From Clostridiaceae bacterium (GTDB lineage Bacteria; Bacillota; Clostridia; Christensenellales; CAG-917), in assembly GCA_031289315.1 (NCBI GenBank), contig JAITPR010000008.1, positions 1 through 64,000 of the forward strand: a stretch of DNA of 64,000 nt, written 5' to 3'. The notes beneath the pieces were generated by a model. That model did no database searches. It had not been told where the DNA came from and saw nothing but the letters and a program-made list of their open reading frames with translations. Positions 2,877 through 58,943 of this stretch are shown here, piece by piece. The translations under genes and the position numbers were made by a program. The stretch's first letter is position 1; each line of letters opens with the position of its first letter.

Positions 2877-2936
2877 TACGGGGGAGTTTAACAAAACTTC
2901 CCCGTTTCCGATTAAAGGGTGCGGACAATCCGTGAT
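2877..2936 (+). repeat. Hairpin plus family A end fragment upstream of the hexosaminidase
   Basis: An inverted repeat of the form ACGGGG..AGTTT / AAACT..CCCCGT occupies about 2878-2905. It is followed at 2917-2934 by GGGTGCGGACAATCCGTG, which resembles the terminal sequence of the dispersed family A repeats described at 13287 and 20522. Confidence 0.4.
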
Positions 2937-2949
2937 TAAAGGTGTATCT

Positions 2950-4535: not shown

Positions 4536-4561
4536 GTTCCTTTTGGACACCCAAAAGGAAC
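4536..4561. repeat. Family B, copy B1: stem-loop module between convergent genes
   Basis: Arms GTTCCTTTTGG and CCAAAAGGAAC enclose ACAC. It sits 12 nt after the hexosaminidase stop and 10 nt from the stop of the convergent isomerase gene, so it could end transcription from both sides. This is a single module of the multi-hairpin family seen complete at 37154 and 54913. Confidence 0.75.
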
Positions 4562-4571
4562 TGCACTTAAA

Positions 4572-5336
4572 TTACAAGCTACGCATAAAGGAGGCATAGT
4601 GCGGGATAGCGATAGCGCTTTCTTCGAGGGAGAGGTCCCAACGTTTCACCCATTCGAGGGAATAGTAACCGTCGTAACCGATTTTTTCGAGTGCGGCAAC
4701 GGCTTCGGCGACGGGAACGGTACCGGAGCCTAACAAGCGGTATTTAACCGCCCCGTTTGTCACCACGCTGTCCTTAACATGGACGTATTTAATGAGATTT
4801 TTGAGGTTTGCGACGGTTTCGGACACGGACTCACCGCCGAACCGGAAGGGATGATGGATGTCCCATAGGGCGCCGCCGCCGGTTTTTTCTAGCACGTCGG
4901 CAAGCCTTGCGGTGTTAACGAAAAGCCCATTCGTTTCGATGAGCGGTTCCACGCCGGAACCCTCCGCATAGCGCAGAACGGCGGCATATTGACGGATAAA
5001 AAGAGCGGTATCTCCGCCGTCGTACTGCGGCGTATCGGTGGAAAGCACGCGGACGAACGGCACGGCAAGCTTTACCGCAAGGTTGATATAATCCTTGGCT
5101 TCGGCAAGCGCGTTCTTAGCGGAGTGCACCGCAAGCTGCGCCGACGACGAGAGCATGGATATTTTAACATCGCGGTCTATGAGGTTTTCCACGGTCAATT
5201 CTTTGATTTTGGGGGCGTACAGCTCACCTAAAACGCCTCGGATTTCCAGCGCGTCAAAGCCCAAATCCTTTACGGCGGATACCGTTTCGTTAAATGTCCA
5301 CGTAGGACAGGCTAATGTGGAAAAAGCAAGTTTCAT
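4572..5336 (-). CDS. Sugar phosphate isomerase/epimerase (xylose isomerase-like TIM barrel)
   Basis: A 254-aa protein of the AP-endonuclease-2/xylose-isomerase-like superfamily. Recognisable strand ends include FDALEIRG, VRVLST, PLIETNG, ALWDIHHPF, YVHVKD and YYSLEW. The acidic and histidine residues in these segments are the usual divalent-metal ligands. Such proteins isomerise or epimerise sugars, inositols or keto acids; the substrate cannot be read from sequence. GGAG lies just upstream of the ATG. The gene is convergent with the hexosaminidase, which may hint at a shared carbohydrate diet but is no proof. Confidence 0.8.
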   Translation of the reverse strand: MKLAFSTLACPTWTFNETVSAVKDLGFDALEIRGVLGELYAPKIKELTVENLIDRDVKISMLSSSAQLAVHSAKNALAEAKDYINLAVKLAVPFVRVLSTDTPQYDGGDTALFIRQYAAVLRYAEGSGVEPLIETNGLFVNTARLADVLEKTGGGALWDIHHPFRFGGESVSETVANLKNLIKYVHVKDSVVTNGAVKYRLLGSGTVPVAEAVAALEKIGYDGYYSLEWVKRWDLSLEESAIAIPHYASFMRSL

Positions 5337-5443: not shown

Positions 5444-5558
5444 TATCGGGGTGAAAGCGGTTGCTATGCCGTTTCGATTTTATCGGGACGAAAACGGTTT
5501 TTATGCCGTTTCAATTTTGGCGGGGGTGAAAGCGGTTGTTACGCCGTTTCGATTTTGG
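5444..5558. repeat. Three tandem 37-38 bp copies covering the 3' end of the acyl-CoA synthetase gene
   Basis: Three units (about 5444-5481, 5482-5518, 5519-5558) each contain GCCGTTTC..ATTTT preceded by a GAAAGCGGTT-like block. The rightmost unit holds the last codons and stop of the synthetase gene (KIETA then stop). The other two repeat those codons and the stop downstream. The rest of 5337-5443 shows no gene. Confidence 0.8.
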
Positions 5559-13739: not shown

Positions 13740-16700
13740 TTAAATCCAGTAAGCGTAAAGTTCCGTGTCTTCGGTTTTGTTCCAAGCTATGACACTTGCT
13801 CCGGTTTCGTCCGTGTAGCGCGTACCGTTACCTCCCGGCTCGTCATACCAACCGCCGAAGGTATATCCTTCTCGTGAGGGTACCGGCAGATTAAAGCTCT
13901 CTCCGTAGGTAACGGTTTCCGTACCGGAGCTTTCGCCCGCCGTGCCGCCCTCGTACGGCTCGTCGCCCTCAAAGTCCAAGCTAAAGGTGATGATTTGTCC
14001 GTAGGCGGAATAGGGATAAATCCGCAAATAATACAGTACTCCGGCGGTGACACTCATGGAATGTTCGGTTAAACTGCCGAAGCTGGACATATTCAACGTG
14101 CCGGCTACAAGATTTTTGTTTATTGTGCCGTAGAACGGATTGTAGACGTCGGTATATAACCCGACGTAATAAATATAATTTGCCGACGAATTTTCATAGC
14201 TCAGGGTGTTAAATGTCAATGTACCGCTCACCGGCGCAACAAACGCCAAATACTGCGAAAGAGTTATCGTTTGATACATGTTTCTCGCCAAAATATCTAT
14301 CTCACCGGTGCCGTAATGTTGAACCCATTTGGCAAAAAGCGTGATGTCGCCGTCGACACGCGCCGCGAAATCATACGCGCTTCCGTTGCCTTCGGAATTG
14401 CCGTACCAACCCGCGAATATGTAATCTCCGCTACGTTCGGGGGAATTGGGGTAAACCAACCCGTTGGTTTCGGTTATGACTTGCGGCGGCGGAGGCGTAC
14501 CCGCAACGCCGTTCAAATCGAAGGATACCGTAAACTGCGCCTTGCTGAAGGACACCGTATACTCGTTGGGAGTCCACAGCGCGGTAAAGGTCTTGTTGCC
14601 GGCACTTCCCTGCGGAATTACGCCGCCCTCAAGCCAGCCGTCGAACTCATACCCATCACGGGTCGGGTCCAAAAGCGTTATCGTTTCCGTTTCCTCAGTG
14701 TATCTTACCGGATTGCCCGCGGCGTTTTCTCCGCCGCCCAGTATGTAACTTATCGAATAAACGTCAAGCCAACGCGCGTAGAGGATACCGCCATGCGGTT
14801 TATCCCATATGCTCACGCCTTCCATGCGCACATTGTAATACAATTTTCCGCCGGCTTCCGCGTCATAATATCCGGCAAACACCGCATTCGCTTTGGTCGG
14901 AGCCACGGCTTGCGGCAGGTTAGCGCCGTATATTGCGGTTACGCTTTCCGTGCCTCCCGCGCCGCCCTTAAAGTCAAGGGTCACAGTGTACTCTCCGGAG
15001 TCCCATGAGGCGGTAAAAATCTTGTCGCCGGTACTGCCCTTTAAGATTGTGCCGCCATCCGACCAACCGGTAAAGTCGTAGCCCGCGCGAGTCGGGTCGG
15101 CAAGAACTACGGTATCGAACTCCACCGTATAGGTCTGCGGATTGGTCGCGGCGTTTTCTCCGCCGCCCAGTACATACGATACGGTATAGACGTGCAATTC
15201 CCACACGGCGGAATAATTTCTGTTGCCGGTGCTGCCCTTTGTTATAACGATATTATCTCCCGACCAGCTCACAAAATCGTAGCCTCTGCGCGTCGGGGGC
15301 GCAATAATGATTGTGTCGGACTCCGCCGTATACTTCGACGGATTTCCTGCGTTATTTTCTCCGCCGTTCAAATCGTAATTAATTGCATATTCCGTAGCCG
15401 TCCAAAGTGCAGTGAACATCTTATTTCCCGTACTGCCCGTCGGAATTATGCCGCCGTCCGTCCAACCGTCGAATTCGTAGCCGGCACGCGGCACGGGATT
15501 AAGCAGAGTAATTGTGGGAGAGTTCACCGTATACGCCGTCGGGTTCGGATTGTTTGCCCCGGCGTCCTCATAGGTTATGGTATAGGTCACGATGCTCCAG
15601 CCCGCGGTAAAGTTCTTATGTCCCGTGCTGCCCGTCGGGATTACGCCGCCGTTATTCCAACCGGTAAAATCATAGCCCGCGCGCGGCGCCGGATTAAGCA
15701 ATATAAGCTCCGGTGACTCTACGGTATAAGTCGACGGATTCGGGTTATTCGCCCCCGCGTTGATATAGGTTATCGTATACGTAACGACCTCCCACGTCGT
15801 CCTGAAGGTCTTATTCCCCGTGCTTCCGGCGGGAATTACGCCGCCGTCCGTCCAACCGGTAAAATCGTAGCCCACGCGCGCCGCCGGGTCAAGCAAGGTA
15901 ATCACGGACGACTCTACGGTGTATGTCACCGGGTTCGGGTTGTTCTCCCCGGCATTTATATAGGTTATGCTATAGGTTACAACGCTCCAACCCGCGGTAA
16001 AGGTCTTCGGTCCAGTACTGCCCGCCGGAATTACGCCGCCGTTATTCCAACCGGCAAAGGTGTAGCCCGCGCGTGCCGCAGGGTCAAGCAAGGTAATCGC
16101 CGGCGACTCTACGGTGTACGTCGCCGGATTCGGATTGTTCCCCCCCGCGTTTATATATGTTATCGCATACGTGACAATCTCCCACGTCGCCGTGAAGGTC
16201 TTGTTTCCCGTGCTTCCGGCGGGAATTACACCGTCGTCCGTCCAACCGGTAAAGTTATAGCCCGTACGCGCCGCCGGGGCAAGTAAGGTAATCGTAGGCG
16301 ACTCTACGGTGTATGTCGCCGGGTTGGGGTTATTCTCCCCCGCGTCCTCATAGGTTACGGTATAGGTAACGGCGCTCCATTTGGCGTACACCACGGTATT
16401 GCCGGTAATAACTCCGCCAAAGTTAAACGGCACGGTGCCGCTTGTGTCCGCATACCAGTCTACAAACGAATAACCCGGCTTTACGGGGTCGCGTGAGGGA
16501 CGCGCGACAAGCCCGGTTTCCGTGTCGCTTTTCGCGCTTGCAACCGCACTGCCGCCGGACGTATTGAAGCTAACATCGTACGCCGTATAGCCCGGAACCG
16601 TAACGCCGTAATCCCACATGGCGTTAAGGCGTATATCTCCGGTTAAAACGGTGTTCGCGTCAAAGCGCTCTCCGGTTGAGTAAAACCACCCTAAAAATTT

Positions 16701-19505: not shown

Positions 19506-19620
19506 GTTCCTTTTGGATAGCCCAAAGGAACTGAAAACCGCAAGCTTGAAGCTTGACACTGATAACCTGAAAACGCGATTGCCGCAAGGATTAAAATTCT
19601 TACGCTCAATCGCGTTTTTA
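19506..19620 (+). repeat. Family B, copy B2 (divergent)
   Basis: Modules in order: GTTCCTTTTGG/CC.AAAGGAAC (19506-19531), CAAGCTTGAAGCTTG (19540-19554), and the large hairpin AAAACGCGATTG / CAATCGCGTTTT with a degenerate top (19569-19620). The stem differs from other copies by a paired G-to-A/C-to-T change. This copy is not directly behind a stop codon in its own polarity. The remainder of 19187-19741 shows no gene. Confidence 0.8.
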
Positions 19621-19741
19621 AATTTATTAATGTTAATCCCCTCGCTTTTCCTTTGTTTTTTCTTTTCCGCCCTCTTGGCGAAACCATATTTTTAGGGTTA
19701 TTAGCGTTTAAACATCAAATTCTCATTTTTTAAATCTGTAT

Positions 19742-21462: not shown

Positions 21463-21876
21463 TTAGCTGTTTTCCTCTTGACTTGCCCTTAACGCGAAGT
21501 ATTTGTCAAGCACTGCCCAAGCCTTTTTATCTTCTTCATTGCCCTTAATTTTCGCATCTGGAAAATACATAAGGTAGGGGAACATGCCATCAGAATAAAC
21601 GCCCAGATCGCTTGCTCGGCAAAGTAGTAGCTTTTCCTTGCCGTCTTCGCGGTATAATTCAAATTCGACAGGACCGAAGTCACCCGGAGTACAAACCTTT
21701 TCGCTATCCGGAGCTTTGCAAAGCGGGCGCTTCATAGCTTCTTTTATCTCTTTAATAACGTCGCATTCGCGAATATCTTCCGTGAATATGAATAGTCTTT
21801 CTCCGTCGTTAGACCATAATATTGATGCCGCAAACACGTCCTCATAAAAAATACACACTTTTTCTATCTTAGTCAT
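21463..21876 (-). CDS. Immunity-like protein, paralogue 1
   Basis: A 137-aa soluble acidic protein: MTKIEKVCIFYEDVFAAS, ILWSNDGERLFIFTEDIREC and KVCTPGDFGPVEF. It is clearly paralogous to the next gene (21994-22410) over its first about 75 residues, with the C-terminal third diverged. Such duplicated small genes behind a toxin-tailed gene are typical of polymorphic-toxin immunity arrays. The start at 21876 is chosen over an upstream ATG because the alignment with the paralogue begins there and the upstream codons belong to a toxin-tip remnant. The fold is not recognised. Confidence 0.65.
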   Translation of the reverse strand: MTKIEKVCIFYEDVFAASILWSNDGERLFIFTEDIRECDVIKEIKEAMKRPLCKAPDSEKVCTPGDFGPVEFELYREDGKEKLLLCRASDLGVYSDGMFPYLMYFPDAKIKGNEEDKKAWAVLDKYFALRASQEENS

Positions 21877-21886
21877 ATTTTCTCTC

Positions 21887-21993: not shown

Positions 21994-22410
21994 CTATTCT
22001 TCGCTAATTTGTTTTAGCCGCAGTTCAAAGTAATCGTCTAACAGCTTTTTTATTTTTTTGCCGTTCTTATATGTTTCTATTTGGCGATTGAGAAAATAAT
22101 CAAGATACGGAAACATATTCATAGAGTAGTATCCTTGATCTAACTCATTATACAGCCAGTAGCATTCAACCCCGTTAATATCATTATATCTTGACACCTC
22201 AATAGGACCGAAGTCACCCGGAGTACAAACCTTTTCGCTATCCGGAACTTTGCGAAGCGGGCGCTTCATAGCTTCTTTTATCTCTTTAATAAAGTCGCAC
22301 TCTCTAATATCTTCCGTGAAGATATAAAGTCTTTCTCCGTCGTTAGACCACAATATTGATGCCTCAAATACGTCTTCATATAACATGCACATTTTTTCAA
22401 GATTTGTCAT
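21994..22410 (-). CDS. Immunity-like protein, paralogue 2
   Basis: A 138-aa soluble protein: MTNLEKMCMLYEDVFEAS, ILWSNDGERLYIFTEDIREC and KVCTPGDFGPIEV. Nearly identical to the gene at 21463 over residues 1-75, it then diverges to YWLYNELDQGYYSMNMFPYLDYF. It begins only about 14 nt after the stop of the toxin-tailed membrane protein, so the two are probably co-transcribed. I infer that it neutralises the C-terminal domain of that protein; no domain is recognised. Confidence 0.65.
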   Translation of the reverse strand: MTNLEKMCMLYEDVFEASILWSNDGERLYIFTEDIRECDFIKEIKEAMKRPLRKVPDSEKVCTPGDFGPIEVSRYNDINGVECYWLYNELDQGYYSMNMFPYLDYFLNRQIETYKNGKKIKKLLDDYFELRLKQISEE

Positions 22411-22423
22411 ATTTCACCTATTT

Positions 22424-24033: not shown

Positions 24034-24224
24034 CACGGCGTACTTGCGCGGAGTTGCCACCTTAAGCACAATCAAAAGGTTCTATATCCCAAAGGCGTAA
24101 ATCCGGTCAACTTCGACACGCGATTCCGTGAAGAATAAACACACGGTAAGCGGAGCGAATACTAATAAATTTAGAACACTGTTCAGTAAGAATTAATCAG
24201 ATACACGGTAAGACTGATGACTTA
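24034..24224. other. Non-coding spacer with direct repeats of a family B edge
   Basis: CACGGTAAG...ACTAATAAATTTA occurs at about 24134-24166 and again at 24203-24237, the second running into the family B hairpin. The same edge (ACGTAAG...TACTAATAAATTTAAAAA) flanks copy B7 at 37990. No gene is seen. Confidence 0.5.
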
Positions 24225-24385
24225 CACTAATAAATTTAAAAACGCGGTTGACGCTAAGGATATAATCCTGCGTCAACCGCGTTTTTCAAGTGATCAGTGT
24301 CAAGCGTCACGCTTGCGTTTTTTCGGTTCCTTTTGGGCACCCAAAAGGAACAAGGGCGTTCTTTTTGACGTATGTCAAAAAGAAC
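24225..24385 (-). repeat. Family B, copy B3, directly behind mnmA
   Basis: Read with mnmA (leftward), 10 nt after its stop: GTTCTTTTTGAC/GTCAAAAAGAAC (24385-24358), GTTCC..GGAAC stem (24351-24326), CAAGCGTGACGCTTG (24317-24300), then the large hairpin AAAAACGCGGTTGACGC / GCGTCAACCGCGTTTTT (24286-24238) with a T run. The first stem and the small stem each differ from other copies by paired changes. Confidence 0.85.
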
Positions 24386-25765: not shown

Positions 25766-25829
25766 GGTTCTTTCTTGCGCGTGCAAAAAAGAACAGCTTT
25801 GTTCCTTTTGGGCGCTCAAAAGGAACCGA
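25766..25829 (+). repeat. Family B, copy B4: two stem-loop modules only
   Basis: GTTCTTTCTTGC..GCAAAAAAGAAC (25766-25794) then GTTCCTTTTGGGC..CTCAAAAGGAAC (25800-25829). The small stem and the large hairpin are absent. It lies just upstream of mnmA. Confidence 0.75.
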
Positions 25830-25983
25830 AGTTGGTGCGCCTTACGAAGCTACACATTTCTATTTCATTAATAGATAATTCAATAAGGCAATTTATTTAG
25901 TTACTTCTTACGAAGCGTATGGCTTAAAATCGTACCATATACGAGAGGAGCAAACGACGAATGCATGAGAGTTGATACGGATA

Positions 25984-26104
25984 ATTTTAAAAACGCGGTT
26001 GACGCTAAGGATATAATCCTGCGGCAACCGCGTTTTTCAAGTAATCGGTGTCAAGCTTCAAGCTTGCGGCTTCTTGGGTTCTTTCTTGCCGGCAAGAAAG
26101 AACG
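25984..26104 (-). repeat. Family B, copy B5, directly behind the gene at 26121
   Basis: Read leftward from the stop at 26121: GTTCTTTCTTGCC/GGCAAGAAAGAAC (26103-26078), CAAGCTTGAAGCTTG (about 26067-26052), then the large hairpin CGCGGTTG / CAACCGCG with a T run (26036-25988). The GTTCC module is missing. Confidence 0.8.
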
Positions 26105-37153: not shown

Positions 37154-37310
37154 CGTTCCTTTTGGGCGCCCAAAAGAAACCGAAAAACCGCAAGCTTGAA
37201 GCTTGACACCGATTACTTGAAAAACGCGGTTGCCGTAAGATTATATCCTTAGCGGCAACCGCGTTTTTAAATTTCTTAGTGTTTAATCCCCAATCCTTAC
37301 GTATTTATTA
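37154..37310 (+). repeat. Family B, copy B6, directly behind the transglutaminase gene
   Basis: Order after the stop: GTTCCTTTTGGGC/GCCCAAAAGAAAC (37155-37180), CAAGCTTGAAGCTTG (37191-37205), then the hairpin AAAAACGCGGTTGCCG / CGGCAACCGCGTTTTT (37220-37268) with a T run. The conserved outer edge, AAATTTCTTAGTG.TTAATCCCCAA.CCTTACGTATTTATT in imperfect form, continues to about 37310. Confidence 0.85.
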
Positions 37311-37984: not shown

Positions 37985-38142
37985 AGTAAATAAATACGTA
38001 AGGGTTGGGGATTAATACTAATAAATTTAAAAACGCGGTTGCCGCTAAGGATATTATCCTGCGTCAACCGCGTTTTTCAAGTGATCCGTGTCAAGCTTCA
38101 AGCTTGCGGTTTTTCGGTTCCTTTTGGGCGCCCAAAAGGAAC
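37985..38142 (-). repeat. Family B, copy B7, directly behind the DUF4011 gene
   Basis: Read leftward from the stop at 38150, 8 nt away: GTTCCTTTTGGGC/GCCCAAAAGGAAC (38142-38117), CAAGCTTGAAGCTTG (about 38107-38093), large hairpin CGCGGTTG / CAACCGCG with a T run (38077-38028), then the same outer edge as B6 (TTAGTATTAATCCCCAACCC...TACGTATTTATTT). Confidence 0.85.
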
Positions 38143-38149
38143 TTTAACC

Positions 38150-41100
38150 TTAGAATGTAATTTTATTATCGAGAGCGACGAGGAACATACCTTTTTTGAC
38201 ACCTTCGTCTATACAATAGTTGATATACTCGGCGCTATCGCCGGTGGGTTTAGTGAAGCCCATAATTTTAGCCGTTTCGGCGACGAGGTCGGCGCGCGGC
38301 ACGGAAACGTAGCGTTCCACTATGCAGCGGGCGGCGGCGATGAACTCGGAGGGATGTATTTCACCGATTGCGCGTTTGCCGGTGCCGTCGTTTTTGGGAC
38401 GGTAGTAGTCGTAGGTAACGACTTCAGGCGCGGTATAGAACACGGTATCCTCGAACACGGTTTTGATAGAGGAGAAGTCCTCCAAAAGCTCGTTGATTTT
38501 AGCGACGGCTTTTGTGTTTGTGCGATTTATGCCGTATATGGTAAACAGCTTACGTTGGAGAACGCTCTCGGCGATGGGCTGTTCAAGGGCGATTATCGAC
38601 TCCGCCTTTTGTTTCATTGCGGCTTCGTTTTTGACGTTTAATACGAAGTCAATACCGCCTTTGACGATTGCCTTAATGGGGACGGCTTTATATTCGCGTT
38701 TAAACTTAGAAGCGGCATTTTCGGGAAGCGATTTAAACTTACCGGACTGCACTGCCGCAAGACGCTCAATGTAGGCTTTGACGCGTTTAATTTCGCGCTT
38801 GGGATTTTGGAGGAAGTTAACCGTCCACATACGGTAGAGGTTCCAGCCCAACAGCTTAAGTGTTTTAACCTCTAGCACGTACTTATCGCGCACGGACTTA
38901 ACCTCACCGGCTTGCAGGCTATCACAGAGAATACCTAACAGGTACTTGTTTTCGTCAATCGGGTCTATGACGCCGACGTCGATTTTGAACCCGCTATCAC
39001 CGACATTGCATTCACAGCGTATGCCCTCTTTTTTGAGTTCTTCGGCTATATACATACCGACGGTATTTTTATCCTCTCGCACCTCGCTTGCGTCTAATGC
39101 AAGCATTGTCTTGCCCTTATCCGCGAATTCTAAGAACGCCTTAAGCCCTAACACGCCTTTGGAGGTGGTTTTGGCAAGGTCTATCATATCGGAGGTGATG
39201 GACGAGAACATGTGCATTTCGCTCTTAGCTCTCGTAACGGCGACGTTCAGTCTTCTGAAACCGCCTTGTTTGTTTAGGGGACCGAAGTTGAGTGACAGGC
39301 GGCAATATTTGTCCGGACCGTAACCTACGGAGAAATAAATTATGTCGCGCTCATCGCCTTGCACGTTTTCAAGGTTCTTGACGAACAGGGGTTCGTCGCC
39401 GGACATCGCGCGCCCTTCAAGCTTGTGCTTAGAGATTGCGGCGGTAAGCCTATCCTCGATGAGCGACCTTTGCGCGCTAGAGAATGTCACAATACCTATA
39501 CTTGATTTATCAAGCGGGTCGGACAGCTTGGATATAACGGCGTTTATCAACGCTTCGGCTTCTTCGGAGTTGGTCTTTGCTCCGCCGCGGTCGTACACGC
39601 CTTCTACGTAATGGAACATAACCTTTGAGGAAAGCTCGTTCGGTGACGGGAAGGTGAGAAGCTTGTTCTCGTAGTACATGGCGTTGGAGAAAGATATTAA
39701 GCTCTCGTGTTTGCTTCTGTAGTGCCATAAGAGGTGGTGTTCGGGAAGCCCTACGGCGATTGCCTCGTCCAGTACGCTTTCCAAATCCTCGTCTTCTAGG
39801 TTGTCCTCGTCCACGTAATCCGAAACGAAGAACGACGTCGGCGGCAGCTGATTGGCATCGCCGACTATGACGACGGTTTTGCCGCGCGCCATAGCTCCTA
39901 CCGCTTCCGCGGTGGGAACCTGCGACGCTTCGTCGAATACTACGATGTCAAACTTATCGTCGTTAATTTCAAGGTATTGCGCCACTGAAATGGGGCTCAT
40001 CAGCATACACGGCGCGGCAATTTTGACGATTTCCGGTATGTCCTTGAACAACTGACGCAGGGTAAGCCCTTTCATTTTGGACTTGACGGCGCGGGCAAGC
40101 ATAAGCCGCTCTAGTGCGAAATCGTCGGTGTCCTTGCTTAATCCGCCGATAAGCCGCGCGCGGATTTCTCTTCTGGTGATGTCTTGGAACTCGTCGTTGA
40201 AACGGCGGAAGCGGTCTATCGACTCCTCCGTAACTGCGGCGGAGAACTCGTTGAGCCGGTCGTCAAGCGCGATTTCCGTTTCCACGAAGTTCTTATATAC
40301 CTTTTTGCGGAAGCTACGCACTAAATCGTCGCTTCTCAAACGTCCTTCCGTGAGTGCCTTGACTGCAAAGCTTAAGCCTTCGTCGTGGCAACGTTTAGCA
40401 AGGTGGTTGAAGCGCACCCAACTGGGCATGAGATACAAGCTTTCTTTGATGGCGCTCAACTTCTTTATCATGAACTCAAAGTAATCTTCCTCTAAGTTTT
40501 CCAGTCCGCCGGTATAGCAGAACTGTTTGATAAACGAGTGCTCCGTAGAAAGCAACATCTTGTAGGAATTCATGAACAGCAGTAAGGAGTCGTACGCCTC
40601 GCTGACGGTAACCTCTTCAATAACCGCTTCAAACGCCTTGCGGTCAAAATCGGTGTAGATGGTTTCGGCAAGCTCGGCTAAATGCTCAAGCGCCTCCTCC
40701 GACTTTAGTATCCGCTCTAGCGGAATATCCTTTATTTGCGGAACGGCTTTTATCAGCTCTTGCGCTTTTTCGTCGACCGTCTGCTTGCAGCTGCGGCGCA
40801 GTAGCAACAGCCGTAAGTAATAATCCTTTTTCTCCTTGAGAAGCGTATGAACTTGGAACTGCTCCAGCTTTTTAAGCGTGGCGGCGCAACAATTGCGGCG
40901 TTTGCCGGTCTCGTCTTCAAGTTCTATTTGCAGTAACTCATAGTTTATCTTTTCGGGTACGCCGTTAAAATCTTGGTCATAGCGTTCCACTACCTGTGTG
41001 TAGCGCTCAACGGCGTTTTTATAGTCGTTCAAAAGCTTTTCCTGCGCGGGGGTGCCGGTGACGGACATAAGCTCTTTGATTTCCGGACCGGACTTTATCA

Positions 41101-43822
41101 AAAGCTTTGCAAATTCGTACAGCGAATTAAGCTTGCTCTTGGAAAGCTTTCTAACGCGCGTACCTATTTCGCTTAAGCATATGTCGGTTATGCGGCGCGT
41201 ATAGGGAAGCTGTTCAAGATAAAGTCCCAACATGCCCTCGCTTCTTCTCTTCCACTTGCCGGAGAACTCAAGCAACTCGATGTTCCTAAACGGCGTACGT
41301 CTTACGTCGCCGATTTCCGTGGCGCAAGCCGCCATTTCTAAGAGGGTGTCCTCATAGCCCTTAAAGGACGCCGCGTTAAGCCTCTCGAAGAAGGTGTTGT
41401 CTATTTCCAGTATGTCGGGCGCGTCCTGATACTCTAAGTACCGCACGATGCCGTCGTAGACCGAAACTCCCAAACGTCTTTCCTTATGCACGGCGTCGTT
41501 TACGTCGGCAAGCTCCTGCGCAAGCGCGGCAAGCTCCTCCGCCTTTTTTGCGAACGCGTCGCCTTGTCCGTCGTCGGCAAGCTTCAAGGTTTCGCCTATT
41601 CTTTCGGCAATTTCCGTCTTGTTCGCCTTGTTGCTATGCAACTCTAGGCAGAAGTCCGCAATGCCGATTTCCGTAAGTCTGTTTTTAACGACCGACAACG
41701 CCGCCATTTTTTCCGCGACGAAAAGGACGCGTTTCCCGCGGGCAAGCGCGCACGCAATCATATTGGTTATGGTTTGCGATTTGCCGGTTCCCGGAGGTCC
41801 GTGTAATACAAAGCTTTCTTTTCCGCTGTCCACCACCGCGGCGAACTGTGAGCTGTCCGCGTTTATCGGCAAGAAAACCTTGTCGGAGGTGTAGGCGCTG
41901 TCCGGGTTGGCGTTTTTGGAGAGCGCCACGCCCTTAAAGGAAATACCGTTGATAATCGAAGAAACGACGGGGTTGTTCCGTATGTCTTCTATCTTGTACC
42001 GCACGTCGTGCCACATCATGTAGCGTGAGAACGTAACCGAACAGAGATATACGTCGTTGACGATATTCCAACCGTTTAACGCCATTATTTCGTTTCTTAT
42101 CAAACCGAAAACGTAATTTATGTCGATTTTCCCTTCGGATAAGTTTGTTAAACCGCGCAAATCAAGGTTGAATTCCTGTTTCAAGAATTCCAACAACGTC
42201 ATATTAATGCTGACGTCCTCTTCACGCAAAGTAATTTTAAAGCCGCGTGCCACGCCCTCCCGTGTTATGGAAACGGGATAAAGTAAAATCGGAGCGTACT
42301 TCGGGGTCTTATCGTCGCGTGCATACCACTTCAAAAAGCCGGATGCCAAAAACAGGGAATTTGCGCCGGTTTCTTCCACGAAAGTGCGTTCCTTTCTGTA
42401 AAGGTTCATTATCGCGGGTTCCAGTTTTTTAGCGGGATAGAAAGCGTGTATACGCTTGTTTTTAAATTCTATGGAAACCAGTTCGGGAAGCGGGTTAACG
42501 TTTACCTTCGTTTCGAAGCTTTCCACGTCGGAAACAATTTTGTCAAGTTCAACGGGCGCGTCCGCAATCGAGTAGCCCTCGCCGCTTGAAATCATTTCGT
42601 CAAGCTCCGTCAAATCCGTGACCAGAAGATGTATGGCTCCGGACTCCTTAAAGTTCAAAAGCGCGTTCTTCTGCGAAAGGTCTAAAAGTCTGCGTTCCCA
42701 CTGCTTTTCGCGGCTACCTTCAACTTTCAAGTTTATGTTGTCGTAGGTTTTTATAGCCGTAGGCGCTTTGGTTATATCGAAGCTTTCTTCCGCGACGACC
42801 TGCCAACCTTGTTTGGTCTTAATGCGTTCGGGTATCGGCTTCACGCCGCCCACACGCGCACGCTTGACGTCTAAAATAAAGTCTATTTTTTTAGGTTGGC
42901 TTAGCTTACGCATAGCGTCCTTGGCGGAAGCTTCTAAATTGACGCTCTCACCGTCGAACAAACTGGCGACGTTGAAAATTTCCATTTCGTTGACGCCGGC
43001 TCCTACGCGCCGCACAAGCTGCCCTATGTCGTCGACGATAGGCTCGTTAAAGCAACGGTCGGCAAGCCATACCGCCACGAAAAACTCACCGTCCGCCTGT
43101 ACAAGCACCGGATTGAAGCCCGCCGCACGGATTGCCGACGACACTAAAATCGCCATTTCCGCAAGCGTCGCCTTTTTGCCGCTTAAAATTTGTGCCGCTT
43201 CCGTGAAAACTACCGGCGTTTCTAAGCTTACCTCTTGGTCCCTGCTTATGGCTAAATCCTGAACGGAAGCCATAATTGCCGCGGTGGCAAAACGCACCTC
43301 GTTGTTGTCAAGCGTCTTATAGCCGCCCTCCAACTTGAACTTCATCTTCCAGTTTTCCAGCACGCTTGAGGCACCCTTGAGGATTTTGGTGGCTATGGGC
43401 GACTTGTCGCTGACGTAAGCCGCCAAAAGCTCCGTTTGAAACGCGGTACCGAAAAATTCGTTGTATCCGCGCAAGGTTACGGAAAGGTTGGACGTGCCTA
43501 TTACTCTGCCGTCCGCCTTGACCTCTATGGCAATGTTGGCGCTCACCGCTTCCGATATAGTTACAAAAAACGAGGGCGAAAAACAAATCGCGGGGTTGAA
43601 GTTGACCGTAGTCTTCGCCGGTAAAAGCTCCTGCTTTATGGTGAGCGGCAACGTAAAATCGGAGGAGATTGTTATCTCTACATCCCTCACTGGGACTTCC
43701 GACGTGTTCCTTATGTAAAATCTTCTGAACAGGGGTAAATTACTTTGATAATTTATATACCCTATGTTCGGAGCTATCTGGCATTCTATCGTTATGCTTG
43801 CCTTAGCCGTGGGTTTAGCCAT
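38150..43822 (-). CDS. DUF4011-helicase-nuclease-DUF3320 protein (Hhe-like single-gene defence candidate)
   Basis: A giant protein of 1890 aa, starting at the ATG at 43822 with AAGGAG upstream. A beta-rich N-terminal part precedes the DUF4011 block (REKQWERRLLDLSQKNALLNF). An SF1 helicase follows: Walker A in VLHGPPGTGKSQTITN, Walker B in IVVFDEASQVPTAEAVG, VGDANQLPPTSFF, and the late motifs VQGDERDIIYFSVGYG and RRLNVAVTRAK. Then comes a Vsr/MTES_1575-type nuclease segment (GFKIDVGVIDP..., YLLGILCDS, KTLKLLGWNLYRMWT) and a C-terminal DUF3320. The same domain order occurs in a reported single-gene anti-phage system (Hhe). It is flanked by an unrelated peptidase, not by other defence genes. Confidence 0.85.
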   Translation of the reverse strand: MAKPTAKASITIECQIAPNIGYINYQSNLPLFRRFYIRNTSEVPVRDVEITISSDFTLPLTIKQELLPAKTTVNFNPAICFSPSFFVTISEAVSANIAIEVKADGRVIGTSNLSVTLRGYNEFFGTAFQTELLAAYVSDKSPIATKILKGASSVLENWKMKFKLEGGYKTLDNNEVRFATAAIMASVQDLAISRDQEVSLETPVVFTEAAQILSGKKATLAEMAILVSSAIRAAGFNPVLVQADGEFFVAVWLADRCFNEPIVDDIGQLVRRVGAGVNEMEIFNVASLFDGESVNLEASAKDAMRKLSQPKKIDFILDVKRARVGGVKPIPERIKTKQGWQVVAEESFDITKAPTAIKTYDNINLKVEGSREKQWERRLLDLSQKNALLNFKESGAIHLLVTDLTELDEMISSGEGYSIADAPVELDKIVSDVESFETKVNVNPLPELVSIEFKNKRIHAFYPAKKLEPAIMNLYRKERTFVEETGANSLFLASGFLKWYARDDKTPKYAPILLYPVSITREGVARGFKITLREEDVSINMTLLEFLKQEFNLDLRGLTNLSEGKIDINYVFGLIRNEIMALNGWNIVNDVYLCSVTFSRYMMWHDVRYKIEDIRNNPVVSSIINGISFKGVALSKNANPDSAYTSDKVFLPINADSSQFAAVVDSGKESFVLHGPPGTGKSQTITNMIACALARGKRVLFVAEKMAALSVVKNRLTEIGIADFCLELHSNKANKTEIAERIGETLKLADDGQGDAFAKKAEELAALAQELADVNDAVHKERRLGVSVYDGIVRYLEYQDAPDILEIDNTFFERLNAASFKGYEDTLLEMAACATEIGDVRRTPFRNIELLEFSGKWKRRSEGMLGLYLEQLPYTRRITDICLSEIGTRVRKLSKSKLNSLYEFAKLLIKSGPEIKELMSVTGTPAQEKLLNDYKNAVERYTQVVERYDQDFNGVPEKINYELLQIELEDETGKRRNCCAATLKKLEQFQVHTLLKEKKDYYLRLLLLRRSCKQTVDEKAQELIKAVPQIKDIPLERILKSEEALEHLAELAETIYTDFDRKAFEAVIEEVTVSEAYDSLLLFMNSYKMLLSTEHSFIKQFCYTGGLENLEEDYFEFMIKKLSAIKESLYLMPSWVRFNHLAKRCHDEGLSFAVKALTEGRLRSDDLVRSFRKKVYKNFVETEIALDDRLNEFSAAVTEESIDRFRRFNDEFQDITRREIRARLIGGLSKDTDDFALERLMLARAVKSKMKGLTLRQLFKDIPEIVKIAAPCMLMSPISVAQYLEINDDKFDIVVFDEASQVPTAEAVGAMARGKTVVIVGDANQLPPTSFFVSDYVDEDNLEDEDLESVLDEAIAVGLPEHHLLWHYRSKHESLISFSNAMYYENKLLTFPSPNELSSKVMFHYVEGVYDRGGAKTNSEEAEALINAVISKLSDPLDKSSIGIVTFSSAQRSLIEDRLTAAISKHKLEGRAMSGDEPLFVKNLENVQGDERDIIYFSVGYGPDKYCRLSLNFGPLNKQGGFRRLNVAVTRAKSEMHMFSSITSDMIDLAKTTSKGVLGLKAFLEFADKGKTMLALDASEVREDKNTVGMYIAEELKKEGIRCECNVGDSGFKIDVGVIDPIDENKYLLGILCDSLQAGEVKSVRDKYVLEVKTLKLLGWNLYRMWTVNFLQNPKREIKRVKAYIERLAAVQSGKFKSLPENAASKFKREYKAVPIKAIVKGGIDFVLNVKNEAAMKQKAESIIALEQPIAESVLQRKLFTIYGINRTNTKAVAKINELLEDFSSIKTVFEDTVFYTAPEVVTYDYYRPKNDGTGKRAIGEIHPSEFIAAARCIVERYVSVPRADLVAETAKIMGFTKPTGDSAEYINYCIDEGVKKGMFLVALDNKITF

Positions 43823-44060
43823 TTTTCTTATCTCCTTGTTCCTTAAAGACGGCGCCGTAAATAAGCGCACGCCGCCGCGCAATCTTTATATATAATAACA
43901 CATTAATTTCTATAAAGCAATAAGTGAATACCGGCAAGACGGCAAAAATATCACCGTCTTGCCAAAATTAATCAAAACACAGCTAAATTTGCGTTGCAAC
44001 CACGAGAAAACGGTTCCGGCGCAAGAGGTTTAGGCGCTTTGATACGCACTCAAACCTTTA

Positions 44061-45616: not shown

Positions 45617-46537
45617 TTAAAATGTTACCCGTAAGATTTTTTTTAAGAGAACGCGTAATCTGCCGTAAGAAAACACCAATATAAATACATTGGAAACGAA
45701 ATGAACGCCATAAAACCAAAGCCCGCGCACATAAAATACTACGAACAGCCGGTTTAACTGCGCCGCAGGAACTCCCCCCGCCGCCGCAAACAACACGTCT
45801 ACGCCGGAGGACAGCACGCCGAAGAACACGGTAAACACGGCGGCAAGCACCGACGCCCTAAACGTATACTCCGCAAAAATTCGCTTTACGGCTCTTTTAA
45901 ATTTTACCAAAACGGCATACGCGGTTTTTCGGAGCGGTTCGGATAAAGCAATTTCCCCTCTCATGTCGTCCGTTACGTCCGTATCAGCTTGTATAACCGT
46001 ATCCGCCGCCGCGTCGCGTTTTTCGGTAAGACCGCTCACGTCGTCCGTTATGCCCGTATCCGCTTGTTTACCCGTATCCGCCTCCGCGTCGCATTTTTCG
46101 GTAAGACCGCCCGCGTTATCAAAAAAATCCTCACCGTCAACGGCATGCTTGGTATTATTTACCAAAGGCTCACGCTTCCTTGAAGCGGCGTTTTTCGGAA
46201 GCACGTTAAGCAAAAGCCACGCGGCAAACCCTAGTAGGTTCCAATATATATAGTAAAGCGGAACCCACGTGCCGAAACCGTATATCGCGAACTCTATAGT
46301 GCAGAAAACCGTAACGGCACAAAAAACCGCCCTGCCGCCGGCAAAGCTTGCGTATAGGATAATCAAGAGAGTAACTACTTCTACGTTCGGAATTACCCTA
46401 AGCGCAAGCTTTGCGCCGGACAAAAGCGCCGCGAAAACCCCCGCATACACCAGTTCCTTTGCGGTTCTTGCGTGTGCGTTACCCGCCGCGCCGTCAAGCG
46501 CGGCGGGAGCTTTATAACTCATATACCGTGAGCGCAT
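45617..46537 (-). CDS. ECF transporter S component, with duplicated cytoplasmic loop
   Basis: A 306-aa polytopic protein. The N-terminal half, AGVFAALLSGAKLALRVIPN, VEVVTLLIILYASFAGGRAV and GTWVPLYYIYWNLLGFAAW, is typical of substrate-binding S components; further helices follow after residue 225. A charged loop (about 118-205) contains two tandem 25-aa copies (GLTEK.DA.ADT..QADT..TDD) that are not expected in the family. GGAG precedes the start. The gene lies 16 nt after a DUF4430 lipoprotein gene and just downstream of EcfT/A2/A1, so it probably uses that module. Confidence 0.75.
   Translation of the reverse strand: MRSRYMSYKAPAALDGAAGNAHARTAKELVYAGVFAALLSGAKLALRVIPNVEVVTLLIILYASFAGGRAVFCAVTVFCTIEFAIYGFGTWVPLYYIYWNLLGFAAWLLLNVLPKNAASRKREPLVNNTKHAVDGEDFFDNAGGLTEKCDAEADTGKQADTGITDDVSGLTEKRDAAADTVIQADTDVTDDMRGEIALSEPLRKTAYAVLVKFKRAVKRIFAEYTFRASVLAAVFTVFFGVLSSGVDVLFAAAGGVPAAQLNRLFVVFYVRGLWFYGVHFVSNVFILVFSYGRLRVLLKKILRVTF
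45959..46108 (-). repeat. Two in-frame 75-bp copies in the S-component gene
   Basis: Each copy encodes GLTEK(C/R)DA(E/A)ADT..QADT..TDD. The DNA words TTTTTCGGTAAGACCGC and CCCGTATCCGC recur. Located in a predicted cytoplasmic loop. Confidence 0.8.
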
Positions 46538-54907: not shown

Positions 54908-54910
54908 GTT

Positions 54911-55066
54911 CGTGTTCTTTCTTGCACACGCAAGAAAGAACACCCTTGTTCCTTTTGGGCGCCCAAAAGGAACCGAAAAACCGCAAGCGTGACGCTTGAC
55001 CCTAATCACTTGAAAAACGCGGTTGACGCTAAGGATATTATCTTGCGTCAACCGCGTTTTTAAATT
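54911..55066 (+). repeat. Family B, copy B8: complete, directly behind PFOR
   Basis: The most complete copy: GTGTTCTTTCTTGC/GCAAGAAAGAACAC (54911-54942), GTTCCTTTTGGGC/GCCCAAAAGGAAC (54948-54973), CAAGCGTGACGCTTG (54984-54998), and AAAAACGCGGTTGACGC / GCGTCAACCGCGTTTTT (about 55014-55062). The last hairpin plus T run has the form of an intrinsic terminator. Confidence 0.9.
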
Positions 55067-55105
55067 ACTTCAAAGTTATCATCTGTATGCTTTCTAAAAT
55101 GTACA

Positions 55106-55615
55106 CTATGAAAAAATCCCGACAATTGTCAAAATAATTGTAATTATACCAAATCCTATTATGCAACCGAGAGTAAATTTCTGCTTTTTATTCGCGCTTT
55201 TTTCGGATTCTTTTTGCCTTTCTTCGATGATATTGAGATGCTTCGCTATGTTACCATCTACCTTTTGAAGTTCAACTATAAAACATTCCGTCTTGGAATT
55301 GATTGCCGAAAGCCCCGCCGAAATGACCTGATTACGCGCTTGCTCCGCTTGTGATGCAATTTTTGTAAATAGTTGCAGTTCGCGCGACAAAGAATCAATT
55401 TCGCCTTTAATCTTAGCTAACTTCTCAATATTTTCTAAAAGCGACCTCTTCATTTCAATTTGAACATCTGACGATTTCGCGATAATCTGTCGGATTTCGG
55501 AAAGCCTTTCAATACTTTTTTCAAGACTCGACTGAGTTTGTGAAACGCTCTTTAGCCCTTCGACATATTTTTCAAGGTCATAAATCACCTTCTTTATATC
55601 ATCATAGTTTATCAT
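55106..55615 (-). CDS. Coiled-coil protein with C-terminal membrane helix, partner of the RecQ fusion
   Basis: A 169-aa protein. Residues 1-140 are predicted helical and heptad-like (YDLEKYVEGLKSVSQTQSSL...SLLENIEKLAKIKGEIDSLS). A KKQK patch precedes one hydrophobic C-terminal helix (FTLGCIIGFGIITIILTIVG). This is a tail-anchored coiled coil, most likely facing the cytoplasm. The gene overlaps the end of the helicase gene by 14 nt, so the two are translationally coupled and probably act together. No family is recognised; a membrane-directed effector or sensor is a guess. Confidence 0.65.
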   Translation of the reverse strand: MINYDDIKKVIYDLEKYVEGLKSVSQTQSSLEKSIERLSEIRQIIAKSSDVQIEMKRSLLENIEKLAKIKGEIDSLSRELQLFTKIASQAEQARNQVISAGLSAINSKTECFIVELQKVDGNIAKHLNIIEERQKESEKSANKKQKFTLGCIIGFGIITIILTIVGIFS

Positions 55616-58600
55616 TTGCCATGCCTCCTAGTTCCATAATCTTATGAATAAAATCAATAAGTAGATATTGCTCACAAACGTCACTGTACGTTTTGCCATA
55701 TATCCACTCCGCGTCTAAATTGCTGTTTTTGAGCCAAGCCTCAACAAATTGCTCGAAATGCTTCGCTTGATAGTTTTCACGTTTTTTATCGGCAAGTAAC
55801 CTATGTGTCATGACAAAAAGCTGTTGCCGCTCCGGCTGATTCCATTCCGAGAGATCTTTTATTGCAAGCGATAACCTGCTTTCTCCGTCCGGATCATCAA
55901 ACTCATCTGAAATTAATCTTACGATTCCGGAGACATAATTTAACGAAGTGATTTGCCCATAAGATTCAAGAAGCCGTGCCAACCTCAATTTTACCGTTTT
56001 AGCCGGACCTTTTAATGCTGAAAACCATGCCTCTGTTTCGGTATTTTTATCAATGAGCCGTACAAATATCGGGTCATTCATGAAATATTCGTTTAAAAGA
56101 TCCATAAATGCGTCCGAATCGGAGAAGCCAAGGCATTGCTCATACAAGGTTTTCATTGATTGAATGCGCTCACTCAAAAAATTCCTGTTTGACCAATCAA
56201 TCAAAAACATAGTGCGGTTTTCAAGGGTGTTTTCCGGAGTTCTCTCCCTTGTATCATCCGCAGCATTTCCGCCGACTATAGAAAATCGAAACTTAGACTC
56301 ATACCGCTCAATATGATTTTTAAGCCTTTCAAACTTTTCTTCTTCCGTTAATTCTGTAGGTCTTAAATTGCAAAACATGGGATTATCAATACTGTCGCCG
56401 TAGGTAAGCGACCACATTTCAATTTCACCCAGCAAAAATAATCTATAAAGTGCGCGCTCAATAATCGTTTTTGCCGAACCCATAGTCCTAAACAACGTGG
56501 ATAAATGTTCATCGTTAACATCGCTTAAAATAGTGGCTCTTATCGTTTCTGCCGAAGCTTCTTGGCTTTCATACTTTTCGTAACGAAGCTTTATCCCTTG
56601 AAGAATTCGCAGTATCACGTCTTTTTCGGGTTTAATGTCGATATTTGCGTTTTGGATAAAATAGAAATTGGTTTGCAGTTCGTCAAGACCCTTAAAATTC
56701 TTAGCCAATTCGGAAATGCTAATACACGGCAGCTTAAATATCGCGCGCAGCAACGCTTCCTTCTTTTCTCTTTTGAAAAACACATAGCAATGCGACAGTT
56801 TTCCGTCACGTCCTGCACGCCCGATTTGCTGATACAAGCTTTCAAAGGACGATGGAAGTCCGTAATGAATTGTAGTTCTTATATCGGAAACGTCCACGCC
56901 CATACCAAAAGCCTTAGTCGCAAAAACTATTTGTGTTTCTCCGGTCTTGAAATTACGCAGCAAATCGGTTTTTTGTATATCGTTAAGCGCCTCTCCTCCG
57001 GCATAATATTCTAAACCGCAAAGTATTCGACGGTCTTCTTGGGCAAAATCATTTTTTATCTCTTCTACAAGTGAAATGCACGCAGAGTCGTGCGGATGAT
57101 AAATCTGATTACCATTTTTCTTTTTAGTAAAAACCAAGATTTTATCATTTTTCACTCCGATAAGCGTCGGCAAAATAGTCGAAACTGTTGCATTGTAAAT
57201 GTCTTCAACGCATTCGACCAAAACTTTTAGATTCTTTCGGCGCATACTTTCCGCTTGTACAACATAGGTGTCCTTCTTCTTGAAATAAAAAAACTCGTTT
57301 TTTATGTCCTCGTAAACCCTATGTGAAGCCGTACCCGTCAATGCCATTAAATACGTATCCGCAGGTAAAAGTAAACTCAAATTATGAGTTAAACATAAGT
57401 AAGAAGTGCGGAAATCGTGTCCCCATTCCGACAGGCAATGTACCTCATCGATAACGATAAAGCCGATAGAAAGGGTTTTTCTGCTCAAAAAAGCAGCCCT
57501 GAATTTTTCACTGAAAAATCGCTCGGGAGAAACAATGGTAATAATTGACTGGTTGCGTAAGAATATATCTAAATTACGATTTTTTCCCGCTTGAATAACC
57601 GTAATATTCCGCATTCCTAAATTAGCTATAATATTATCTCGCTGATCGTCCATTAAAAGACGTAACGGCGCGATCGTTACCGTCAATTGCGGAATCAACA
57701 AGCTGCATAACTGATAGCAAAGCGACTTTCCCGAACCCACCGGCAGAATACCTATAACACAACGATTATTAAGGCACTCCGTAATAATGTCCAGCTGATT
57801 GGTGCGGAACTCGGTATACGTAACGGAAATGTCCCTTAAAAATCTTCTTAGGGCAATTCCGTGTTCGGGTATATTTATCGCGTATTCCGCCAACGCATAC
57901 TCCACATGAAAATAATTCCGCTCCCATGCGTGCTTATCGCAATTTATTGAAAACTGAAAGTAATCATTCCTTACATAAACCGTATGCTCGTCTTTGGGAT
58001 ACGAGTACAACTCAAATAACGAAATATCAAGCCTTATCCCATTAAACGCCGGCAATTCTCTTTCGTTATTAAATAAAAACAATTGCATTTTAGGAATGTC
58101 AAACTCAATATTTTGCAGACACAAAATGTTCTTCCACCATTTATAAAAATCCTTAATTGCGCACCTTACTACAACCTCCGGAATCTCTTCGCGGCAAAGA
58201 ATACCAATGTTAATCTCCTTATCCGTAATTTGTATTCTACCCGTTCCGTAAAGGCGCAACAGCACTTGTTCTATACGCATGGCATATGCGTAATCCAACT
58301 CATGTATATCAATGCTATCAATTTCAACCGTATTTTTATCGAAACCGTCCGTATCGATTGCAAACAACTCGCTCAACTGTTTTCTAACAGTTTCAAAATT
58401 GTATACCTCGGAAGTTTTTATTCGTATAAGCGTTATCCCTTTGCTGCTAAAAAGTCTGTTCCTCTCATAGTCTTTTGCCCGCTGTTCGCCATAGTCATGT
58501 TGTTCTCCGTCAATTTCAATAACGGCATTGTAGACAGGCGAATAAAAGTCAACCTGTCCAAAGCTCTTCGCCCCCTGAATAATGTCACTTACCGGAAACT

Positions 58601-58943
58601 CCGGAATAAATGATTTCGCCAAGTGTTCGGGTAATATACTCGGAAGCACCTTATTGTAGAAATGAAGTGCCGGATTAAAAGTAGTTCCGCCCTTAATAAT
58701 TGGTGCCCAATCTATTTCTTTATAGCTATAGCAATATCTAAACGGAGTATCTTTCACAAACTCAAATGAAAATTCCTCCCTCAAATATTCGGAGGGTATT
58801 GTCGGACACCCCCGCGCAAATATGTTATTCAGAACAGCATACGCAACACCAATAGGAGCGTCTTTATCCAAGACACTCTCGCCTATGTTTTGTATTACAA
58901 AGTTCGGATTAACCGAACAATATGCCGCCGAAACCTTTATCAC
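55602..58943 (-). CDS. PDDEXK nuclease-RecQ helicase fusion
   Basis: A 1113-aa protein with a GTG start 7 nt after AAAGGG. Residues about 125-180 form a DUF559/Vsr-like endonuclease core: FGQVDFYSP, NAVIEIDGEQHD, then YERNRLFSSKGITLIRI. A RecQ-type SF2 helicase follows: Walker A LPVGSGKSLCYQL (about 400), DEVH box with FIVIDEVHCLSEWGHDFRTSY (about 497), ALTGTAS (about 535), and motif VI YQQIGRAGRDG (about 704-714). No RQC zinc or HRDC domain is visible. About 370 C-terminal residues are unassigned. With its membrane-anchored partner and divergent regulator it resembles a defence module. AT-richer codon use than the flanking housekeeping genes suggests acquisition. Confidence 0.8.
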   Translation of the reverse strand: MIKVSAAYCSVNPNFVIQNIGESVLDKDAPIGVAYAVLNNIFARGCPTIPSEYLREEFSFEFVKDTPFRYCYSYKEIDWAPIIKGGTTFNPALHFYNKVLPSILPEHLAKSFIPEFPVSDIIQGAKSFGQVDFYSPVYNAVIEIDGEQHDYGEQRAKDYERNRLFSSKGITLIRIKTSEVYNFETVRKQLSELFAIDTDGFDKNTVEIDSIDIHELDYAYAMRIEQVLLRLYGTGRIQITDKEINIGILCREEIPEVVVRCAIKDFYKWWKNILCLQNIEFDIPKMQLFLFNNERELPAFNGIRLDISLFELYSYPKDEHTVYVRNDYFQFSINCDKHAWERNYFHVEYALAEYAINIPEHGIALRRFLRDISVTYTEFRTNQLDIITECLNNRCVIGILPVGSGKSLCYQLCSLLIPQLTVTIAPLRLLMDDQRDNIIANLGMRNITVIQAGKNRNLDIFLRNQSIITIVSPERFFSEKFRAAFLSRKTLSIGFIVIDEVHCLSEWGHDFRTSYLCLTHNLSLLLPADTYLMALTGTASHRVYEDIKNEFFYFKKKDTYVVQAESMRRKNLKVLVECVEDIYNATVSTILPTLIGVKNDKILVFTKKKNGNQIYHPHDSACISLVEEIKNDFAQEDRRILCGLEYYAGGEALNDIQKTDLLRNFKTGETQIVFATKAFGMGVDVSDIRTTIHYGLPSSFESLYQQIGRAGRDGKLSHCYVFFKREKKEALLRAIFKLPCISISELAKNFKGLDELQTNFYFIQNANIDIKPEKDVILRILQGIKLRYEKYESQEASAETIRATILSDVNDEHLSTLFRTMGSAKTIIERALYRLFLLGEIEMWSLTYGDSIDNPMFCNLRPTELTEEEKFERLKNHIERYESKFRFSIVGGNAADDTRERTPENTLENRTMFLIDWSNRNFLSERIQSMKTLYEQCLGFSDSDAFMDLLNEYFMNDPIFVRLIDKNTETEAWFSALKGPAKTVKLRLARLLESYGQITSLNYVSGIVRLISDEFDDPDGESRLSLAIKDLSEWNQPERQQLFVMTHRLLADKKRENYQAKHFEQFVEAWLKNSNLDAEWIYGKTYSDVCEQYLLIDFIHKIMELGGMANDKL

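What the first reader, a model, noticed from the sequence alone, without database searches (positions are those of the whole stretch)
54911..55066. Family B: a dispersed, modular multi-hairpin 3' element with covarying stems
Nine full or partial copies (4536, 19506, 24225, 25766, 25984, 37154, 37985, 54911, 59604). The order from the stop codon is fixed: an optional GTTCTTTCTTGC stem, a GTTCCTTTTGGG stem, an AAGCTTgAAGCTT stem, then a long CGCGGTTG hairpin with a T run. Behind PFOR, mnmA, the 26121 gene, the transglutaminase and the DUF4011 gene the element starts 6-16 nt after the stop with the same polarity. Several stems change in paired fashion (AAGCTT/AAGCTT to AAGCGT/ACGCTT; GGTTGCC/GGCAACC to GGTTGAC/GTCAACC; CGGTTG/CAACCG to CGATTG/CAATCG; TTCTTGC/GCAAGAA to TTTTGAC/GTCAAAA). 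This suggests selection for structure, as terminator, mRNA 3' stabiliser, or a REP/BIME-like element that targets gene ends.
Basis: partly seen in the sequence, partly recalled or inferred. Interest (0 to 1): 0.78.

Follow-up and report, generated by a model that had tools for sequence, protein, structure and literature searches.

The report
Triplex-pseudoknot hairpin cassettes ending bacterial genes
About a hundred near-identical clusters of DNA/RNA hairpins, each finishing in a two-way transcription stop signal, sit just after the stop codons of genes in one uncultured bacterium, and their hairpins carry an unusual triple-strand-plus-pseudoknot signature that also turns up in distant bacteria and virus-derived contigs.

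Summary
The element has about 108 places in the 2.18 Mb genome. Each is a stack of modules: 1-3 near-perfect 26-28 nt hairpins ("caps", four arm types), a small UGA-loop hairpin, then a long terminator hairpin. Of 50 copies read, 40 start within 55 nt after a same-strand stop codon, usually 5-17 nt (null 9.7%, P about 1e-31). The last two hairpins show strong compensatory change.

Two things were not in the finding. (1) The A-rich stretch 3' of the last cap is the mirror image of the cap's purine arm (AAAAG/GAAAA, AAGAAA/AAAGAA, AAAAA/AAAAA), the signature of a purine-motif intrastrand triplex. The stretch after it can pair with the cap loop, giving a pseudoknot. (2) Both rules hold in Bacteroidota, Ignavibacteria and virus-collection contigs; in the last they were tested with the linker left free.

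It works like a REP/BIME-type 3'-end element fused to a bidirectional terminator. It is not shown to be a member of REP: no Y1 transposase was found and no GTAG/CGTC tag was seen. The composite was not found in other genomes searched. Function (termination, exonuclease barrier, ribosome stalling) is inferred; nothing was measured.

The parts
54914..54941 (+). cap hairpin type B (GTTCTTTCTTGC/GCAAGAAAGAAC), 6 nt after the PFOR stop
   Evidence: sequence; fold; stop distance
54948..54973 (+). cap hairpin type A (GTTCCTTTTGGGCGCCCAAAAGGAAC)
   Evidence: sequence, fold
54974..54982 (+). linker CGAAAAACC: mirror of the cap's purine arm (AAAAG-GAACC-GAAAA), the proposed third strand
54984..54998 (+). 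small hairpin M3, CAAGCG-TGA-CGCTTG (CAAGCT-TGA-AGCTTG in most copies)
   Evidence: covariation T-A 30 / G-C 12 at the closing pair
55013..55061 (+). M4 terminator hairpin, A-tract - 17 bp stem - T-tract, usable from either strand
24220..24385 (-). full copy (caps D + A, M3, M4) behind mnmA, 9 nt after the stop
25971..26103 (-). full copy (cap B, M3, M4), 17 nt after the stop of the 26121-27203 gene
37155..37286 (+). full copy (cap A, M3, M4), 13 nt after the stop of the 34064-37141 gene
38011..38142 (-). full copy (cap A, M3, M4), 7 nt after the stop of the DUF4011 gene
19506..19637 (+). full copy not behind a same-strand gene (an exception to the 3'-end rule)
4536..4561 (.). single cap A filling the 47-nt gap between convergent genes 2773-4524 and 4572-5336
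25767..25826 (+). two caps (B, A) followed by a different tail (CGAAGTTGGTGCGCC) instead of M3/M4

Best explanation
This is a dispersed 3'-end cassette. Shown: (a) it starts a few nt after stop codons in the sense orientation; (b) it ends in a long A-tract/T-tract hairpin that is normally the only terminator-like structure there; (c) M3 and M4 are kept by compensatory change; (d) the cap's downstream linker mirrors its purine arm, and the following bases can pair with the cap loop. Inferred mechanism: M4 ends transcription from both sides, which is why the element is common between convergent genes. The caps fold into triplex-pseudoknots (pyrimidine arm - loop - purine arm - hinge - purine third strand - loop-pairing tail) on the nascent mRNA and/or on extruded single-stranded DNA. 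There they form a rigid block right behind the stop codon that would hinder 3'-to-5' exonucleases and may slow the terminating ribosome, as E. coli REPs within 15 nt of a stop do. Modules spread and swap by copying or recombination; the agent is unknown.
For: About 108 places. 40/50 copies within 55 nt of a same-strand stop, null 9.7%, P about 1e-31. No second terminator in 36/39 and convergent enrichment. Covariation 0/500 shuffles and collapse when partners are slid. Relatives' PFOR (21) and mnmA (18) 3' ends carry no caps, and the PFOR ends mostly have one ordinary intrinsic terminator. Mirror rule in own genome: arm AAAAA to linker AAAAA 15/17, AAAAG to GAAAA 12/15, AAGAAA to AAAGA 7/9. 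Free-linker scans of virus contigs: arm AAAGAAA to linker AAAGAAA 8/12 against 2/27 for another arm (P 3e-4); arm AAGAAAA to AAAAGAA 8/27 against 0/12 (P 0.04). Loop-tail pairing 4.9 bp against 3.6 when tails are swapped, 0/2000, and in Bacteroidota/Ignavibacteria 6.05 against a swap maximum of 5.67 in 500. Second lineage with the same placement: MAG E01, first units mostly 2-22 nt after a same-strand stop.
Against: No expression or 3'-end data; every functional step is inference. Loop-tail pairing is weak in the window's own copy (cap A, 3 bp) and only slightly above swapped tails within this genome (3.84 against 3.63, reached by 3/1000 swaps). One-sided (G-U) changes are rare against two-sided ones (7 against 51 cells), so the constraint could be on DNA or on both strands rather than on the mRNA, or whole blocks may have been exchanged. 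In Pontibacter and Ignavibacteria the cap unit has no stop-codon bias, so a 3'-end role is not a property of the cap itself. Own-genome arm types are few lineages, not independent events. The terminator scan did not list M4, probably because of a bulge.
Confidence: 0.58

Rival explanations
1. Selfish non-autonomous mobile element (MITE/REP-like) that lands in or replaces terminators. Structure is kept because the mobilising enzyme reads folded single-stranded DNA, and gene ends are simply where insertions are tolerated.
For: About 108 dispersed copies, several contigs ending inside copies, mosaic and doubled units, absence at the same genes in relatives, scattered phylogeny of the cap unit, few G-U intermediates. 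For pneumococcal repeats, convergent-gene enrichment is read as a sign of parasitic mobility (PMC3049150).
Against: No Y1_Tnp in the genome; no target duplications or terminal repeats identified by eye; the uniform sense orientation and 5-17 nt spacing after stops exceed mere tolerance; the element supplies the only terminator-like hairpin in 36/39 cases.
Confidence: 0.25
2. Ordinary intrinsic terminators spread by local gene conversion; the caps are incidental palindromes kept perfect by hairpin-templated repair, with no structural role.
For: M4 looks like a normal terminator; perfect palindromes can be maintained by template switching (general knowledge); few G-U pairs.
Against: Arm correction does not explain the mirror linker or the loop-tail pairing, which lie outside the palindrome and recur across phyla; caps are present at nearly all copies and sit next to the stop.
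Confidence: 0.12
3. RNA pseudoknot only: the A-rich linker lies in the minor groove of the cap stem, as in viral H-type pseudoknots, and there is no DNA triplex. (Differs from the best explanation in the fold, not in the 3'-end role.)
For: Geometry is canonical (stem 10-11 bp, 1-nt first loop, 6-7 bp second stem, 7-8 nt A-rich third loop); linker length follows arm length (AAAAAAA/AAAAAAA, AAAAAAAA/AAAAAAAA).
Against: G residues in the linker sit opposite C-G pairs in mirror register, which A-minor contacts do not require but a purine-motif triplex does; Bacteroidota units show no gene-end or strand bias.
Confidence: 0.3

Closest known systems
Purine-motif (class II) intrastrand triplex repeats, TMECO / ITxF motifs (Holder et al. 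2015, PMC4666352)
   Same: Order pyrimidine stem - loop - purine stem - short hinge - second purine stem, dispersed in many copies and intergenic
REP / BIME elements (E. coli and others; GTAG/CGTC super-families, PMC3733652; RepRanger survey PMC12306157)
   Same: 20-40 nt palindromes in clusters, mostly downstream of genes, some within 15 nt of the stop where they stall ribosomes
   Different: No GTAG/CGTC tag seen, no RAYT, mirror linker and loop-tail pairing, own terminator attached
Pneumococcal BOX and SPRITE repeats (PMC3049150)
   Same: BOX: modular with a variable number of an inner module; SPRITE: terminator-like repeat; both enriched between convergent genes
   Different: No sequence relation seen; no cap array followed by a terminator and no fixed spacing to stops reported in the passages read

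Membership tests
REP/BIME | short palindromes in many intergenic copies, mostly downstream of genes | tested here: met
REP/BIME | GTAG or CGTC unpaired tag at one end | tested here: not met
   units begin GTTC, preceded by GCCCTT/GGCTCT-like spacers; read by eye, no tag scan run
REP/BIME | associated RAYT (Y1_Tnp) in the genome | tested here: not met
   PF01797 absent; the genome is 89.6% complete
Purine-motif intrastrand triplex repeat | Y - R - R arrangement with mirror-related purine stretches | tested here: met
Purine-motif intrastrand triplex repeat | triplex formed in vitro (CD, NMR, thermal melting) | not testable with these tools
   needs oligonucleotides
H-type pseudoknot | loop pairs with sequence 3' of the stem, kept by covariation | tested here: met
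   across species; inconclusive inside the window's own genome
Intrinsic terminator | G/C-rich hairpin followed by a T run at the gene end, no other terminator there | tested here: met
   M4; RNA 3' ends not measured
MITE | terminal inverted repeats and target-site duplication, empty sites | tested here: inconclusive
   none seen by eye; no second genome of the genus among the relatives searched
Any Rfam 15 family | match at gathering score | tested here: not met
   window and 17 loci with the cap unit

The most novel reading that the evidence does not exclude
The cap is a so far undescribed, widely spread structural class: an A/T-rich intrastrand triplex locked by a loop-tail pseudoknot. In at least two unrelated lineages (this genome and MAG E01) it has been recruited in tandem arrays directly behind stop codons as a dedicated mRNA 3'-end module.
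Probability: 0.4. Interest if true: 0.8.

Novelty: new variant of a known kind. Interest (0 to 1): 0.62.

Why it matters
If right, it links two puzzles that were studied apart: why bacterial genomes keep repeated triplex-forming motifs, and what palindromic repeats directly behind stop codons do. It offers a family with natural compensatory variants (arm, linker, loop and tail change together), so triplex and pseudoknot formation can be tested by simple swaps. It also gives a ready covariance/mirror rule for finding such units elsewhere.

Tried and rejected
Integron attC reading rejected: core boxes do not fit and copies are dispersed (sequence, own knowledge). Two pattern searches were mistyped (the pattern misses the own genome) and are not used as evidence. 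A scan of genome contigs for the composite M3-M4 core found nothing (the own genome may be left out there). Linker folding back onto the pyrimidine arm as an alternative duplex rejected: type A would need its G on the other side. Literature searches by sequence string gave nothing relevant. G018/G020 elements (L102-L109) share the mirror cap (AAAAG-GAAGC-GAAAA) but look like another repeat and were not pursued. Virus-contig hits of the TTCCTTTTG pattern (L258-L264) mostly do not follow the mirror rule and count against it. Weak Rfam matches to the window copy are eukaryotic microRNA hairpins far below cut-off: chance.

Full report
OBSERVATION. The window is C21 of a 2.18 Mb, 63-contig assembly. 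The sequence at 54908-55070 folds into four hairpins with z = -10.7, and the last alone has z = -8.7. The DNA query gives 129 matching pieces in the genome. A covariance model made from 42 copies gives 146 hits, which merge to 108 places or about 50 per Mb. Cap hairpins alone number 83 for types B/C/D and 28 for type A, with zero in the reversed-pattern control.

ANATOMY. From the stop codon: one to three caps separated by 6-nt spacers (GCCCTT, GGCTCT, ACCCTT), an A-rich linker, the M3 hairpin with a UGA triloop, a link (GACACTGATTACTTGA), then M4 with an A-tract before and a T-tract after its stem. Cap + linker + M3 can be doubled with a GAGCCTCT spacer. M4 comes in at least three stem versions (CGCGGTTGACGC, GCGCGGAATACGC, ACGCGTAATACGA), each paired.

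POSITION. Of 50 copies read with flanks, 40 lie within 55 nt after a same-strand stop, 31 within 20 nt; random intergenic positions would give 9.7% and 4.0% (P about 1e-31 for both; the null uses the window's gene map only). The downstream neighbour is convergent in 27 and tandem in 16, against 8:38 for genes of the window. Only 3 of 39 have another terminator-like hairpin within 150 nt downstream, so the element is normally the gene's own terminator. PFOR orthologues in 21 relatives and mnmA orthologues in 18 have no caps; the PFOR ends mostly carry one ordinary terminator.

COVARIATION. For M3 + M4 (22 pairs, 42 copies), 97.1% of cells pair, 13 pairs change on both sides, and 51 cells are doubly changed against 10.5 in shuffles (0/500). 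Sliding the partners destroys the signal. Only seven cells changed on one side by a wobble. A G-U pair on one strand is an A-C mismatch on the other, so this fits a hairpin needed on both strands, as in a bidirectional terminator, or block exchange; I cannot separate these.

THE CAP UNIT. There the eight loop bases and the bases after the linker are complementary and change together: TCTTGAC/GTCAAGA, TCTTGAT/ATCAAGA, TCTTGAA/TTCAAGA, TCTTGGC/GCCAAGG. The mean longest pairing is 6.05, against 5.31 (maximum 5.67) with tails swapped. This is an H-type pseudoknot arrangement. In this genome the pairing is good in type C (TGCGCG/CGCGCA) and type D (CACGT/ACGTG), and weak in A and some B.

THE MIRROR RULE. 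The linker mirrors the purine arm about the hinge GAACC: AAAAA-GAACC-AAAAA, AAGAAA-GAACC-AAAGAA, AAAAG-GAACC-GAAAA. To test this without choosing the linker, virus contigs were scanned with only the arms fixed. Arm AAAGAAA is followed by AAAGAAA in 8 of 12 distinct hairpins and arm AAGAAAA by AAAAGAA in 8 of 27; the reverse combinations occur in 2 of 27 and 0 of 12 (Fisher P 0.0003 and 0.04). Loop-tail pairing in the 26 rule-following sides is 4.92 against 3.61 (0/2000). Related contigs were reduced to distinct sequences, not corrected for phylogeny. Identity mirrored about a short hinge is what a purine-motif intrastrand triplex needs; Holder et al. 2015 (PMC4666352) showed such a fold for a G/C-rich E. 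coli repeat and found no gene-position rule.

SECOND LINEAGE AND SPREAD. In MAG E01 (labelled Williamsia; 47% G+C in the 100 kb read, so the label is doubtful) first units sit mostly 2-22 nt after same-strand stops, with second units about 60 nt further on. Pontibacter and Ignavibacteria copies show no such bias. In 398 genomes of the window's phylum only this one has B/C/D caps in the exact form searched, and in 43 of the family two others (G018, G020) have cap-A-like hairpins. So the unit is patchily distributed, and the composite was seen in this genome only.

HOW IT LIKELY WORKS. M4 as terminator for both flanking genes is the safest step (about 0.8). That the caps form a stable 3'-end block is plausible from position and structure; ribosome effects are argued from E. 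coli REPs within 15 nt of stops (PMC12306157). Dispersal is unexplained: no Y1 transposase.

VERDICT. A real, strongly structured, 3'-end-targeted composite repeat. In function it is closest to REP/BIME plus terminator, and in cap architecture to intrastrand triplex repeats with an added pseudoknot. It is a new variant of known kinds, with an untested possibility of a new structural class.

Noticed in passing
window 13321, 17856, 19360, 33860, 47058: Another dispersed repeat family (GTGGACAATTCGAGG...AAAATATTTTTA ... AAAAGATTTTCTTG..GCAAGTCGTC), about 130 nt, 74-86% alike in the full copies.
   Followed up: no
window 25827-25850; L040:1750-1780; L060:2440-2476: Some caps are followed by another tail, AGTTGGTGCGCCTTACGAAG, instead of M3/M4: a second partner module.
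   Followed up: partly
G018/G020 loci L102-L109: Same-family genomes carry a different dispersed repeat whose hairpin follows the same mirror rule (AAAAG-GAAGC-GAAAA).
   Followed up: partly
L273-L292 (MAG E01): Tandem cap units with CTTC, CTAC and GTTC arms right behind stop codons; the element start ACTCCGT often abuts the stop codon.
   Followed up: partly
window 38150-43882 and 55602-58943: Large helicase/nuclease proteins: DUF4011 + MTES_1575 (PADLOC PDC-S37/Hhe) and a DEAD helicase with DUF559/DUF2726 (DpdF-like matches), possible anti-phage genes.
   Followed up: partly
window 21665-21880 and 22199-22414: 216-nt direct duplication, 89% identical, in adjacent small genes.
   Followed up: no
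window 15410-16379; 45957-46106; 5444-5561: Tandem repeats: 195-nt units in the 1328-aa gene, 75-nt units, and 37-38-nt units upstream of 5539-7200.
   Followed up: no
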